DNA from: Rhodococcus rhodnii NBRC 100604
GTDB taxonomy: Bacteria; Actinomycetota; Actinomycetes; Mycobacteriales; Mycobacteriaceae
Length of the DNA stretch: 64,000 nt
Reading direction: 5' to 3'
Assembly (NCBI RefSeq): GCF_001894925.1
Contig: NZ_BCXD01000008.1
Span: 1-64,000, forward strand
Below are positions 5,511-22,524 of this stretch, one piece after another (the stretch's first letter is position 1; each line of letters begins with the position of its first letter). The translations under genes and the position numbers were made by a program. A model generated the notes under the pieces. That model was not told the origin of the DNA. It saw nothing but the letters and a program-made list of their open reading frames with translations, and ran no database searches.

Positions 5511-5817
5511 CAAACTCTCCTGGGGTGAGCCGGAATCGCGTGCCCGATGCCACCCGCCTCGGCGGACGCCATAGGCAACCGATACCCCCTGCCGGTAGGG
5601 GTCGAGCCGGGTTCGCCGCTCGGCACTGCTGCCAGTCGGGAAACCGGGCGCCGGGTGTCCTGTTCATAGAGGTTAACCCGCGAAGTCGTCGCCGCGACAA
5701 CCGGGTGCCGTCGGATCGGTCACTGTATCGATCCGATGCATTTCTGTTAACTCCACGCGACCCGCCGCGCATTCCGCCGCCGCGCGGGGCCGGGGCGTCA
5801 CCCGAGTGGCGTGGGCC
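5511..5817. promoter_or_regulatory. pckG upstream region with candidate operator
   Basis: This 307-bp spacer lies between pckG and the DxDGDG gene, both on the minus strand, and holds no convincing gene. The clearest structure is an inverted repeat, TCGGATCG (5711-5718) and CGATCCGA (5729-5736), separated by 10 nt. Two GTTAAC hexamers lie at about 5673 and 5746. The dyad is about 200 bp upstream of the pckG start and could be a regulator site. No -10/-35 pair could be assigned. Confidence 0.35.
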
Positions 5818-6141
5818 TCACGAGTCGCCGAGCAGCCCGTCGTCGATGCGGTCCCACGTGGGGTTTCCGTCGTCGTCGACCCGGAACTCCCAGGCGTCGT
5901 ACTCCCCCGACGCGTCGAGGAAGGTGACGCGGTCCGCGTCGCCGTCGCCGTCGAGGTCGGTGGCGATCACGGTTCCGTCGCCGTCCGCACGCACGTATGT
6001 GTCGAAGATCCCGTCGCCGTCGAGGTCGTGGGTGAGGCTCGTGAGAGCGACGGACCCGGACTCGGGGCCGAACGAGCGGGCGTCGAGTTCGACGTCGAGG
6101 TCGACTCCCGACACGGACGTCGTGGGGTCTTCGGCAACCAC
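5818..6141 (-). CDS. Small acidic protein with DxDGDG calcium-loop-like repeats
   Basis: About 107 aa. The start is GTG 6141, which has AGGAG 5 nt upstream; a longer frame to 6162 lacks a ribosome site. The middle carries repeated Asp/Gly loops (DLDGDGIFDTY, RADGDGTV, DLDGDGDADR, DDDGNPTWD), resembling EF-hand or dockerin-type Ca2+ loops spaced 15-20 residues apart. There is no signal peptide, so the protein looks cytosolic unless exported by another route. I do not recognise a function. Ca2+ binding is inferred from the loops only. Confidence 0.65.
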   Translation of the reverse strand: MVAEDPTTSVSGVDLDVELDARSFGPESGSVALTSLTHDLDGDGIFDTYVRADGDGTVIATDLDGDGDADRVTFLDASGEYDAWEFRVDDDGNPTWDRIDDGLLGDS

Positions 6142-18940: not shown

Positions 18941-19086
18941 CCGAGCCCTCCCCACGCTATGCCAGTGCAAATCTCACAGGATGGCAAACCCGCCACTAGA
19001 ATCTGTCGATTTAGCTCGTACGAGCCCAGGGAGCAAGCGAATTGCCGGCTCGTCCATCGCTGAGATAGAAGAATCGAAGCTAGAAC

Positions 19087-20346
19087 TTATAGCCGAGATA
19101 TCGTTTTTCGCGACGGAACCACTAGGTGTCCATCCCGGATTAAAAGGAACCGCTCAACTCCAGGAATAAAAACATTCACGATTGCGAGGTCTTGCGATTC
19201 GAACCGGACCGAATAATAAGACTTCAAACCTCCATCCAGTAGCGCACTCGCCGCAGCCGCGACTTGCTCGACAGTATCAATGAAATAGCCGATACTATCG
19301 GGGAACTCCCGCGAACGCACATTCTCAATTCGACTATCCAAATCGAATTCACTTGCGCTTCGCAACTTCGAACCGGGCTCGCCAACACTCTTCTTTGAGT
19401 ACTCTAAGCCTTTCCGGGCGATAGACCCACTTTCAATCGCAAACTTTGATTGCGCTATTTCCGAAAGCGCGCGTTCAACTGCGTGTTCGTGAGAGATCGA
19501 TGAACCAGCCCCTCTCAATCGGTCATCAAGTAGCCTCACTCCAGGCGCATACGCAATATATGTCGGATAGTCTACCGACCCGACACAACGGATGACGTGG
19601 ATTCGAGACCCAATCACTGATTCCGATTGAATCCATTTCCCCCTCAGCGATTCCGGCACGGATTCACGATCGACCGAATTAATGGGTTGCGGCTTTGAAC
19701 TCAGGAACTGATCGGCAATGAATTCTGATACGAGATGTCGCTCAATCTGCTCATTAAGAGCATGCAGCAGTGCATCTTCGACTGTCACGCCCGCCGCCCA
19801 CCCTGTACTGGTGCAGTAGCGCGCGATGGGCCTGTAGTCGAAGCTGTCCCCAAGGCTCTGCCGAGCGTCTGCTGACTCAACAAATGAGGGGCTACTCAAA
19901 CCCAAGGGAACGTCGATTGGGCCTCGGTAATCCGCGGCCGGGGCGACAGCCCGATACTCGGCGCAAGCCATCAATCCCTCGGGGGCTTCACCGACAATAT
20001 CCGCCAGGAGATCGCCGGCGAGGGCCTCTTTGGCGACTCTACTAGAGCTGGCCAACTTAACAGTCTCCGCGGGAACGGAACACGATCGAGACACGTAATG
20101 CTCTAACGCCTCGAAAACTGCCCCGACTCGAGCAGATGCTGAGGATCCCTTTCCCATACCGAAAGCAATTCGCTCTCTGGAATTTGGGTATGCGCCCGAT
20201 GCGAAAAGGTCACATCGCCACGCCGCCGTGTCCTCGCAGATTCCGATACGCTCCACAACTGAAGTAAGCCCGAATTCTTCCACCGCACGGCGTGCGCTAG
20301 CTGCAGCGCAATCCAAACAGTGTGTTCGCTCGCCGAATCTACGCAA
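19087..20346 (-). CDS. YcaO-domain protein, candidate RiPP-modifying enzyme
   Basis: 419 aa from TTG 20346, with AGGAG about 8 nt upstream and an in-frame stop (TAG) just before it. YcaO enzymes use ATP to activate peptide amides and form azolines, thioamides or amidines. Family motifs are present: IAFGMGKGSS followed by FEALEHY (about 58-84), STGWAAGVTVEDALLHALNEQIERH (about 180-204), and ISHEHAVERALSEIAQSK (about 284-301). There is a CxxC at residues 10-13. The C-terminus is not the PxPxP end of classic azoline synthetases. No E1-like, TfuA, dehydrogenase or transporter gene adjoins it. It is second in a two-gene unit behind a 33-codon peptide gene and a hairpin. Confidence 0.85.
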   Translation of the reverse strand: MRRFGERTHCLDCAAASARRAVEEFGLTSVVERIGICEDTAAWRCDLFASGAYPNSRERIAFGMGKGSSASARVGAVFEALEHYVSRSCSVPAETVKLASSSRVAKEALAGDLLADIVGEAPEGLMACAEYRAVAPAADYRGPIDVPLGLSSPSFVESADARQSLGDSFDYRPIARYCTSTGWAAGVTVEDALLHALNEQIERHLVSEFIADQFLSSKPQPINSVDRESVPESLRGKWIQSESVIGSRIHVIRCVGSVDYPTYIAYAPGVRLLDDRLRGAGSSISHEHAVERALSEIAQSKFAIESGSIARKGLEYSKKSVGEPGSKLRSASEFDLDSRIENVRSREFPDSIGYFIDTVEQVAAAASALLDGGLKSYYSVRFESQDLAIVNVFIPGVERFLLIRDGHLVVPSRKTISRL

Positions 20347-20371
20347 GGCAACAATCTCCTAGATTTATGGA

Positions 20372-20402
20372 GCATCCCCGCAGCTCTAGGCTGCGGGGAT
20401 GC
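20372..20402 (-). terminator. Strong hairpin between peptide gene and YcaO gene
   Basis: Perfect 13-bp arms GCATCCCCGCAGC / GCTGCGGGGATGC enclose a 5-nt loop, starting 6 nt after the peptide gene stop and ending before the YcaO ribosome site. There is no U-tract. In RiPP operons a hairpin here usually acts as a partial terminator or RNA stabiliser, giving excess precursor over enzyme. Confidence 0.8.
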
Positions 20403-20408
20403 TATCGC

Positions 20409-20510
20409 TCAGAGCTGGTCGATCAGACTCATGATCTCTACCTCCACCTGAGCGAGATTCTGATCGGGGTCAGCGACCAGAAACCAATCTCCGAGAAAGA
20501 TGCCTGCCAT
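20409..20510 (-). CDS. 33-residue putative RiPP precursor peptide
   Basis: A short gene of 33 codons. The ATG at 20510 has a perfect AGGAGG 6 nt upstream, better than most genes in the window. The peptide begins MAGIFLGDWFLVADP, has an acidic amphipathic middle and ends EIMSLIDQL. The N-terminal half is hydrophobic and aromatic; the C-terminal half is rich in Asp/Glu/Leu/Ile, like a recognition helix. It has no Cys or Thr and a single Ser, so classic thiazole chemistry is impossible. The YcaO may instead form thioamides, an amidine or a macrocycle. An N-terminal core with a C-terminal follower (as in bottromycin) or a conventional leader are both open. Confidence 0.6.
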   Translation of the reverse strand: MAGIFLGDWFLVADPDQNLAQVEVEIMSLIDQL

Positions 20511-21147
20511 AACCTACCTCCTGATTCTCGACGGAGACCAATCTCCGTCCCACCTTACGGGCGGGCAAAATCGGCCAGTTGCCGCTCGTGCGAGCGGCCT
20601 GACCACGACTTGTTCGGGTGTGCACAGACATGGGTGCGGGCTACCGACCGCTGCGCCTGGCCGACTACTCCAGAACCCCAGATTCCGTTTGGTGGGTCCT
20701 GGGCGCCGCAGACCAGAACGATCAATCTCAAGAGCTTGCGTCCACAGCCTCCCCTTGGGCTGGCCCTCCTCGAGATTCGACGCCACCTGACTCGGAATGG
20801 ATGCAGCGTTGAATAACCGGTGTTACATGCGGATTTTGCATCCTCACATCCCAAAACCACACTCCTCCGACGCTAGCAATCCACCGCCAAGGACGCAAGC
20901 GTCAATGGGGTTCGATATCTTGCAGTTCGCGATAGAATTTCCGGTAGGCAAACAAGTGGAGAACCATTTGAATTATGGGTTATTCCTTCATCCATCTCGT
21001 TCTTTTTCTACCCCCAACCGTCGCAGTTAAGGACAGTTGAGGAAACATGAATTCGCTATCACCAAATTTGAGAGATTCTCGTAACTGGCGTCGATGTCAC
21101 GGCTTGCGGTTCGGCTCCTGCGCCGAGCGCGCGGTGCCGTAGCGCAC
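20511..21147. promoter_or_regulatory. Long non-coding region upstream of the peptide gene
   Basis: This 637-bp stretch has only unconvincing open frames on both strands. Next to the peptide gene's ribosome site is a hairpin, GACGGAGA / TCTCCGTC (20530-20549, 4-nt loop). Its loop side repeats 11 bp (ACCAATCTCCG) of the peptide gene exactly 54 bp away. A second perfect palindrome, GCCGCTCG TG CGAGCGGC, lies at 20581-20598. A -10-like TAAGGT occurs on the minus strand near 20553. The stretch 20820-21060 is AT-rich and looks like decayed or foreign DNA. Confidence 0.45.
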
Positions 21148-21300
21148 CTACGACTCGCGGCGGTAGAGGACGCCGAGCCAGACGAGCGCGGCCACGATCG
21201 CGGCGCCGCCGCTGACCATCGCACCGACGGCGAGGAGCATCGTGCCGACCGCGGCGAGCAGCGCGATGACACAGACGGACACCGCCAGGCGTGTGCGCAT
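21148..21300 (-). CDS. Small two-helix membrane protein
   Basis: 50 aa from ATG 21300, with AGGAGG 7 nt upstream; the longer frame to 21549 is antisense to the next gene. Two hydrophobic helices (LAVSVCVIALLAAVGTMLL and GGAAIVAALVWLGVLY) are joined by a short turn, with a basic end (YRRES). No family was recognised. It is divergent from the UPF0104 gene. Confidence 0.6.
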   Translation of the reverse strand: MRTRLAVSVCVIALLAAVGTMLLAVGAMVSGGAAIVAALVWLGVLYRRES

Positions 21301-21387: not shown

Positions 21388-22524
21388 GTGGCACCGCCTC
21401 GTTCGACCTCGCCTGCGTCCGACTCGTCTCGGCCGCGCAGGTGGCTTCGAATCACTGCGGCGCTGGTTCTGCTCGGCATTCTGACGGCCGAGGCGGTCTA
21501 TCTGTGGCCGACACTCCACGAGTCGTGGCGGGCACTCACCGAGATCCACTGGGGGTGGGTGGGCGCGGCGGTCGTGGCGCAGTTCGTCTCGCTCGGTGCG
21601 TACGGCCTGTTGCAGCAGCGGCTGCTCGGTGCCGGGGGCGTCGTGGTCGGGCGGAGGAGGTCGACGTCGGTGATTCTCGCCGGTACGGCGATGACGCTGA
21701 CGCTTCCGGCGGGGCAGGTCTTCTCGACGGCGTTCACGTACAAGCAGACGCGGCGGTGGGGTGCGACACCCGTGGTCGCGTCGTGGCAGCTCGCGATGTC
21801 AGGGGTCATGGCGGCGGCGAGCCTCGCAGCGATCGGCGCGGTGGGTGCACTCGCGTTCGGGACGCGGATCAGCCCCGTCGCGCTGGTCCTGACGCTCGTC
21901 GCGGCTATCGCGCTGTTCTCGGCCCTGCGGTACATCTCGCGGAATCCGGAGTCGATGCGCACGATCGGCGAGGCCGTGCTCGCGCGCTGGAATCGGCTGC
22001 GATCGAATCCGCCGGGGACGGGATCGGAGACGTGGGGCGCCGTTCTCGAGCAGCTCGACGCCGTCGAGTTGCGACGGCGCGACGGCGCGGCGGCGTTCGG
22101 CTGGTCGGCCGTCAATCGGGTCGCCGATCTCGCGTGTCTGGGGTTCGCGTGCTGGGCGGTGGGTGCGGAGCCGTCGTTCGCCGGGCTGCTCATCGCGTTC
22201 ACCGCGGCGAAGGCCGTCGGGAGCATTCCGCTCGCACCGGGCGGGCTGGGATTCGTCGACGGCGCGCTCATCGCGGCACTGACGGCGGCGGGCCCGACTG
22301 CGTCGGGCGCGCTGGCGGCCGTCTTCGTGTATCGCATCGTGAGTTTCGTGCTCATCGCGCTCGTGGGATGGCTCGTGTTCGCGGTGCTGTTCCGCTCGCC
22401 GCACGTCGGTGATTCCGAGTTGGCCGACGATCATCTCGATCGCGAGTACGGGCAGGGTCCGTCGCCGTTTCCGCGGCGTCGTCGCAGCGGGGTCGCTCCG
22501 GATCCCGATCCGGACCCGGTCTGA
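21388..22524 (+). CDS. UPF0104 / lysylphosphatidylglycerol-synthase TM-domain flippase-like protein
   Basis: 378 aa from GTG 21388. It has eight hydrophobic helices and the UPF0104 pattern, including LILAGTAMTLTLPAGQVFSTAF-like and AAKAVGSIPLAPGGLGFVDGAL segments; the PxxPGGxGxxE region is modified to PLAPGGLGFVD. It is an integral membrane protein related to the flippase half of MprF and lacks the soluble synthase domain. Lipid or polyprenol-linked glycan flipping is the family's suspected role. The C-terminus is polar with Arg and Pro. Confidence 0.8.
   Translation: MAPPRSTSPASDSSRPRRWLRITAALVLLGILTAEAVYLWPTLHESWRALTEIHWGWVGAAVVAQFVSLGAYGLLQQRLLGAGGVVVGRRRSTSVILAGTAMTLTLPAGQVFSTAFTYKQTRRWGATPVVASWQLAMSGVMAAASLAAIGAVGALAFGTRISPVALVLTLVAAIALFSALRYISRNPESMRTIGEAVLARWNRLRSNPPGTGSETWGAVLEQLDAVELRRRDGAAAFGWSAVNRVADLACLGFACWAVGAEPSFAGLLIAFTAAKAVGSIPLAPGGLGFVDGALIAALTAAGPTASGALAAVFVYRIVSFVLIALVGWLVFAVLFRSPHVGDSELADDHLDREYGQGPSPFPRRRRSGVAPDPDPDPV

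What the first reader, a model, noticed from the sequence alone, without database searches (positions are those of the whole stretch)
20409..20510. Unannotated peptide with aromatic N-terminus and acidic C-terminal helix
The peptide begins MAGIFLGDWFLVADP and ends EIMSLIDQL. The split between a hydrophobic, Gly/Trp/Phe-rich front and an acidic amphipathic back resembles precursors with an N-terminal core and C-terminal follower, as in bottromycin, as much as a leader-core layout. No Cys and no Thr narrows the possible chemistry to backbone amides, Ser, Asp/Glu or Trp. Gene callers usually miss such a short gene.
Basis: partly seen in the sequence, partly recalled or inferred. Interest (0 to 1): 0.75.

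Follow-up and report, generated by a model that had tools for sequence, protein, structure and literature searches.

The report
Minimal bottromycin-like peptide and YcaO pair
An unannotated 33-residue peptide gene sits directly upstream of a YcaO enzyme gene on a small foreign DNA insert, and comparison with dozens of other bacteria indicates that it is the substrate of a two-gene natural-product system laid out like the antibiotic bottromycin, with the product at the front of the peptide and the enzyme's docking helix at the back.

Summary
The peptide is real at the stated coordinates, on the MINUS strand: MAGIFLGDWFLVADPDQNLAQVEVEIMSLIDQL. AGGAGG lies 6 nt before its ATG. A perfect 14-bp hairpin follows, then a standalone YcaO gene (19087-20346, minus). 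Both genes lie on a ~2.1-kb, 54.5%-GC insert in a ~70%-GC genome; congeners have the flanks joined.

Of 80 named loci with a related YcaO, 74 have a candidate short ORF just upstream (71 chosen mechanically, a few wrongly; 3 read by eye). Residue 2 is Gly/Ala in 62/71 (background 16%). A variable front is followed by a C-terminal L[ST]xxE helix (39/48; shuffles at most 9). These YcaOs resemble BtmF, the bottromycin macroamidine enzyme, not BtmE. A precursor profile built without bottromycin recognises the bottromycin precursor.

Most likely Met is removed, YcaO binds the C-terminal helix and activates a core amide, and the N-terminal amine closes an amidine; that chemistry is inferred. The window peptide is a divergent member: its own profile score is weak (2.2 bits) and no close homologue permits its own dN/dS. 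It is not a bottromycin: no Cys, one YcaO, no tailoring genes on the insert.

The parts
20409..20510 (-). Precursor peptide gene, 33 aa plus stop, MAGIFLGDWFLVADPDQNLAQVEVEIMSLIDQL
   Evidence: sole occurrence in the genome
20469..20507 (-). Proposed N-terminal core, residues 2-14 (AGIFLGDWFLVAD); the border is a guess
   Evidence: position of the variable front in relatives; inference
20412..20468 (-). Proposed C-terminal follower, residues 15-33, with L19-x3-E23 in the register of the family L[ST]xxE motif
   Evidence: weak, 2.2 bits; helix 19-32 in a single-sequence model
20517..20522 (-). Ribosome-binding site AGGAGG, 6 nt before the ATG
20371..20403 (-). Perfect 14-bp hairpin (5-nt loop) between peptide stop and YcaO start; no T-run, so a stabilising or processing element rather than a clear terminator
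   Evidence: (z = -4.7)
19087..20346 (-). Standalone BtmF-type YcaO, 419 aa, TTG start with its own AGGAG (20356-20360); 54% GC
   Evidence: Pfam PF02624 90.8 bits; family profile 333 bits; model pLDDT 93.5 with whole-length YcaO fold
18955..21085 (.). Low-GC (54.5%) inserted stretch holding only the peptide and YcaO genes; borders approximate. In congener G025 the flanks (window 18920 and 21369) are 20 bp apart

Best explanation
The peptide is the precursor of a two-gene RiPP with bottromycin architecture, modified by one standalone BtmF-type YcaO. Inferred course: (1) the peptide is made in excess of the enzyme, the intervening hairpin stabilising or partly ending the message; (2) methionine aminopeptidase removes Met because residue 2 is Ala, exposing the N-terminal amine; (3) YcaO binds the C-terminal helix as a follower; (4) with ATP it activates a backbone amide in the Cys/Ser/Thr-free front and the N-terminal amine attacks it, giving an N-terminal (macro)amidine; (5) a host protease removes the follower. 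Shown here: gene, ribosome site, hairpin, insert, family-wide precursor layout, BtmF-type enzyme. Inferred: steps 1-5, ring size and any bioactivity.
For: Ribosome site and position. Residue 2 Gly/Ala in 62 of 71 mechanically chosen upstream ORFs of related YcaOs, background 16% of 731. L[ST]xxE in 39 of 48 Met-Gly relatives, shuffles at most 9; Asp-hydrophobic in residues 3-12 in 26 of 48, shuffles at most 21. Purifying selection on Nonomuraea relatives: median dN/dS 0.22, differences by codon position 189/234/539. YcaO family profile built without window and BtmF: window 333, BtmF 251, BtmE 54, E. coli YcaO 30 bits. BtmF and BtmI are required for the amidine macrocycle and not for the thiazoline, and cyclisation requires removal of the initiator Met (PMC5103208). 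Precursor profile built without bottromycin scores the bottromycin precursor 10.5 bits, 0 of 1000 shuffles. No Cys/Ser/Thr in the front, so no azoline there; no TfuA in the genome.
Against: The peptide's own match to the family profile is weak (2.2 bits, 2.4% of shuffles). No close homologue, so no test of selection on this peptide. Bottromycin macrocyclisation also needs the amidohydrolase BtmI (PMC5103208), and no such gene is on the insert. No transporter or protease gene on the insert. Amidine chemistry is not shown for any two-gene member. The YcaO is a long, weakly placed branch in the quick tree.
Confidence: 0.55

Rival explanations
1. It is a YcaO-modified precursor with an N-terminal core, but the chemistry is not an N-terminal amidine: a backbone amidine from ammonia, a ring through the recurring Asp (D8-W9 here), a thioamide, or YcaO-driven cleavage.
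For: Asp followed by a hydrophobic residue recurs in the front. ItfB makes a backbone amidine with ammonia (PMC11002830). Solved standalone YcaOs nearest in fold are the methanogen enzymes, and one YcaO structure is titled as an ATP-dependent peptidase (7u58).
Against: Gly/Ala at residue 2 is the strongest constraint, which fits a need for a free N-terminus; sequence is closest to the macroamidine enzyme BtmF; no TfuA in the genome.
Confidence: 0.33
2. The ORF is a regulatory leader peptide: its translation and the following hairpin control expression of YcaO, and it is not a substrate.
For: Short ORF, hairpin, then gene is the shape of an attenuator.
Against: The protein sequence, not codon runs, is conserved in relatives (dN/dS 0.22), with a conserved C-terminal motif; the hairpin sequences differ between relatives; some loci have two tandem copies; in bottromycin the peptide in this position is the substrate (PMC5103208).
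Confidence: 0.06
3. The ORF is a chance reading frame and the true substrate lies elsewhere.
For: Weak profile score; no homologue of its own.
Against: Full AGGAGG plus ATG in the expected place (about 0.005 expected); same position and Ala2 as in relatives; no better candidate was seen on the insert.
Confidence: 0.05

Closest known systems
Bottromycin pathway of Streptomyces scabiei (precursor BtmD, macroamidine YcaO BtmF)
   Same: Met-Gly/Ala start, N-terminal core, C-terminal acidic follower helix, standalone YcaO without partner; YcaO alignable over its whole length (26% identity over 432 aa, E 7e-22)
   Different: Window has one YcaO instead of two, no Cys8, no Pro2, and none of the methyltransferase, P450, amidohydrolase or M17 peptidase genes on the insert
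Unnamed two-gene loci found here (e.g. Nonomuraea MGNVVDYV..., Kutzneria MGFLKDLYG..., Pseudomonas MGYMASWNANK...)
   Same: Gene order, ribosome site, peptide size, small residue 2, BtmF-type YcaO, often a hairpin between the genes
   Different: Window peptide starts Met-Ala, is shorter, has LAQVE instead of L[ST]xxE, and its YcaO is at most 35% identical to any of them
Streptamidine family (PMC8442711; related work on spyrimidone cited in PMC12670281)
   Same: YcaO acting on a precursor not rich in Ser/Thr/Cys; amidine with the N-terminal amine
   Different: There the core is internal (HLSATH), and an AmiB (RRE/E1-like), hydrolase and dehydrogenase are required; none is on this insert
Klebsazolicin and other linear azol(in)e peptides
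   Same: YcaO-dependent N-terminal amidine in klebsazolicin (PMC7136475)
   Different: Leader peptide, Cys/Ser/Thr-rich core and E1-like partner; none here

Membership tests
Bottromycin family | BtmF-type standalone YcaO | tested here: met
   Profile built without window and BtmF: window 333, BtmF 251, BtmE 54 bits
Bottromycin family | Second, thiazoline-forming YcaO (BtmE type) and a Cys at core position 8 | tested here: not met
   No Cys in the peptide; the genome's other YcaO is on another contig and unrelated to this type
Bottromycin family | Radical SAM methyltransferases, P450, amidohydrolase and M17 peptidase in the cluster | tested here: not met
   The insert holds only the two genes and the flanks are shared with congeners that lack it; distant genes were not searched
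Bottromycin family | C-terminal follower of BtmD type | tested here: inconclusive
   BtmD itself scores 10.5 bits with the family profile, the window peptide only 2.2 (2.4% of shuffles)
Two-gene N-core / BtmF-type YcaO family (defined here) | Short ribosome-site ORF just upstream of the YcaO with Gly/Ala (small) residue 2 | tested here: met
Two-gene N-core / BtmF-type YcaO family (defined here) | C-terminal L[ST]xxE helix | tested here: inconclusive
   LAQVE in register; 2.2 bits, rank 12 of 959
Streptamidine family | Partner RRE/E1-like protein, hydrolase and dehydrogenase in the cluster | tested here: not met
   None on the insert
Thioamidated RiPPs (thioamitides) | TfuA partner | tested here: not met
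   No TfuA in the genome
Azol(in)e RiPPs (LAP/TOMM) | Cys/Ser/Thr in the core | tested here: not met
   Only S28, inside the predicted helix
Any RiPP | Peptide is translated and modified by the enzyme | not testable with these tools
   Needs expression and mass spectrometry

The most novel reading that the evidence does not exclude
Bottromycin is one heavily decorated branch of a widespread, mobile family of two-gene YcaO RiPPs, in which a single BtmF-type enzyme guided by a C-terminal helix closes an N-terminal amidine on front sequences that need no Cys, Ser or Thr; the window holds one of its smallest and most divergent members.
Probability: 0.45. Interest if true: 0.75.

Novelty: new variant of a known kind. 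Interest (0 to 1): 0.6.

Why it matters
Most standalone YcaOs have no known substrate. The pattern 'Met-Gly/Ala, variable front, L[ST]xxE tail, next to a BtmF-type YcaO' gives a simple searchable definition of likely substrates for one large group of them and predicts a reaction that can be tested with only two genes. If the enzyme closes N-terminal (macro)amidines on fronts lacking Cys/Ser/Thr, it would be a very small, portable peptide-cyclisation system, and bottromycin would be explained as an elaboration of it.

Tried and rejected
Close homologues of the peptide: none beyond itself in its genome, none in plasmids. Close homologues of the YcaO: none at E 1e-10 in 27 congeners or 200 other family genomes, none at E 1e-25 in a phylum sample of 396. 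Phage and viral collections: none, so no sign that it is phage-borne. Rfam on the insert: none. tRNA attachment site: no tRNA in the window. Intrinsic terminator: the hairpin has no T-run and is not called as one. First precursor profile, which still contained a wrong automatic choice (L021), ranked the window peptide 33 of 959; after correction 12 of 959, still weak. YcaO tree: only the quick tree finished and WINDOW, BtmF, BtmE and E. coli YcaO are long branches, so no clade claim is made from it. A gene shared by all loci besides peptide and YcaO: none found. Nocardiopsis Met-Ala-Cys peptides do not match the follower profile better than shuffles, so they may be a separate subfamily. Prior description of this family: none found in the open-access library; subscription papers were not held, including in vitro bottromycin work and the 2025 peptide-nucleobase paper.

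Full report
Observation. The stated interval encodes the stated peptide, on the minus strand. A full AGGAGG lies 6 nt before its ATG; only two of 959 possible 24-70-aa frames in the window have that combination. The stop is followed by a perfect 14-bp hairpin (fold z = -4.7) and then by a YcaO gene with its own ribosome site.

Context. Peptide and YcaO lie on a ~2.1-kb stretch of 54.5% GC in a window of about 70% GC. In congeners the conserved DNA on the two sides is adjacent: in G025 the counterparts of window 18920 and 21369 are 20 bp apart. The YcaO has no counterpart at E 1e-10 in 27 congeners or 200 other genomes of the family. It looks like a self-contained acquisition of two genes. The genome has no TfuA and one other YcaO of a different type on another contig.

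Relatives. A YcaO alignment brought in 80 named loci, mostly Actinomycetota, with Pseudomonadota and single loci from other phyla. Choosing the upstream ORF mechanically (best ribosome site, then nearest) gave 71 candidates: residue 2 was Gly in 48 and Ala in 14, against 16% Gly+Ala among 731 other ribosome-site ORFs of the same loci. Three loci without an automatic choice show the peptide on inspection (L026, L052, L078). A few automatic choices are wrong (L021 for example), which weakens rather than creates the signal. Many loci are related by descent, so the binomial probability overstates the number of independent cases. In 48 Met-Gly peptides below about 70% similarity, L[ST]xxE occurs in 39 (shuffles at most 9) and Asp followed by a hydrophobic residue within residues 3-12 in 26 (shuffles at most 21). 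In ten Nonomuraea-type peptides the median pairwise dN/dS is 0.22, and differences fall 189/234/539 on codon positions 1/2/3. L010 and L071 carry two tandem copies whose fronts differ while the tails agree; L060 also has two, but with less clear a split. Stems of at least 10 bp, of unrelated sequence, sit between peptide and YcaO in 13 of 30 relatives examined; no shuffled control was run for these.

Link to bottromycin. One retrieved locus is the bottromycin cluster of S. scabiei, whose precursor reads MGPVVVFDCMTADFLNDDPNNAELSALEMEELESWGAWDGEATS. The family YcaO profile, built without window and BtmF, scores window 333, BtmF 251, BtmE 54, E. coli YcaO 30 and the genome's other YcaO 21 bits. 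Mutants lacking BtmF, or the amidohydrolase BtmI, have the thiazoline but not the amidine macrocycle, and cyclisation requires removal of the initiator Met (PMC5103208). A precursor profile built without the bottromycin precursor gives it 10.5 bits, reached by none of 1000 shuffles. Enzyme type and precursor layout are thus shared with bottromycin.

The window peptide itself. It fits by position, ribosome site, Ala2, the acid-aromatic D8-W9 and the register L19-x3-E23, but its profile score is only 2.2 bits (2.4% of shuffles; rank 12 of 959). Its YcaO is at most 35% identical to any relative and is a long, weakly placed branch. Membership rests on gene context and enzyme type more than on peptide sequence.

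Mechanism. Shown: coding context, insert, family-wide layout, enzyme type with the family-invariant residues in place and a full-length YcaO fold (pLDDT 93.5; best solved match 6peu, Z 33.8). Inferred: removal of Met by the host aminopeptidase (Ala at residue 2 is permissive; established knowledge), follower binding, ATP-dependent activation of a front amide, attack by the N-terminal amine, host removal of the follower. Composition excludes azolines in the front. Thioamide formation is less likely without TfuA. Use of ammonia, as in ItfB (PMC11002830), or of the recurring Asp is not excluded. No BtmI-like gene is on the insert, which is the main objection to a bottromycin-sized ring.

Novelty. 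The layout is that of bottromycin, so this is not a new kind of system. What I could not find described in the open literature is the breadth of the two-gene form, its motif definition and this minimal mobile example. Earlier surveys of standalone YcaOs (PMC8442711) report peptide networks in supplementary files that could not be read here, and these may already contain such peptides without comment.

Noticed in passing
L024:7265-9472, L029:6950-9154, L032:7248-9479 and about a dozen others (downstream of YcaO): In Streptosporangiales a ~700-aa NACHT-type NTPase gene directly follows the YcaO on the same strand, often within 10-90 bp. A peptide-YcaO-NACHT unit might have a role in immunity or signalling; untested.
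   Followed up: partly
L067, L072, L074-L077, L079, L080, L083, L087, L089, L094, L095: Nocardiopsis loci have 31-36-aa Met-Ala-Cys-Ala peptides (e.g. MACAGYEWTAPLESADEIAPAVEELDEETAE) upstream of the YcaO; they do not fit the L[ST]xxE follower and may be a separate subfamily.
   Followed up: no
L096:1711-1869, L098:5656-5814, L100 ~5800-5950, L102:5689-5814: Vibrio plasmids and two Firmicutes share a different start, MG[NKS][KA]R[ST]EI, in the peptide upstream of a distant YcaO; in Vibrio the YcaO is followed immediately by an ABC transporter gene.
   Followed up: no
window 21148-21300, minus strand: A 50-aa hydrophobic ORF (MRTRLAVSVCVIALLAAVG...) with a full AGGAGG site, in a high-GC segment next to the insert; no clear match at this site in eight congeners.
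   Followed up: partly
L125 (genome contig C37, 9151-10200): The genome's second YcaO is of a different type (21 bits with this family's profile) and probably belongs to another RiPP cluster.
   Followed up: no
window 20774-20789 and 21438-21453: A 16-nt inverted repeat, 94% complementary, spans the right edge of the insert; it may be chance.
   Followed up: no
L003:7725-10914 (Streptomyces plasmid): Here the peptide-YcaO pair is followed by a SagB-type dehydrogenase gene, suggesting that some members add an oxidation step.
   Followed up: no
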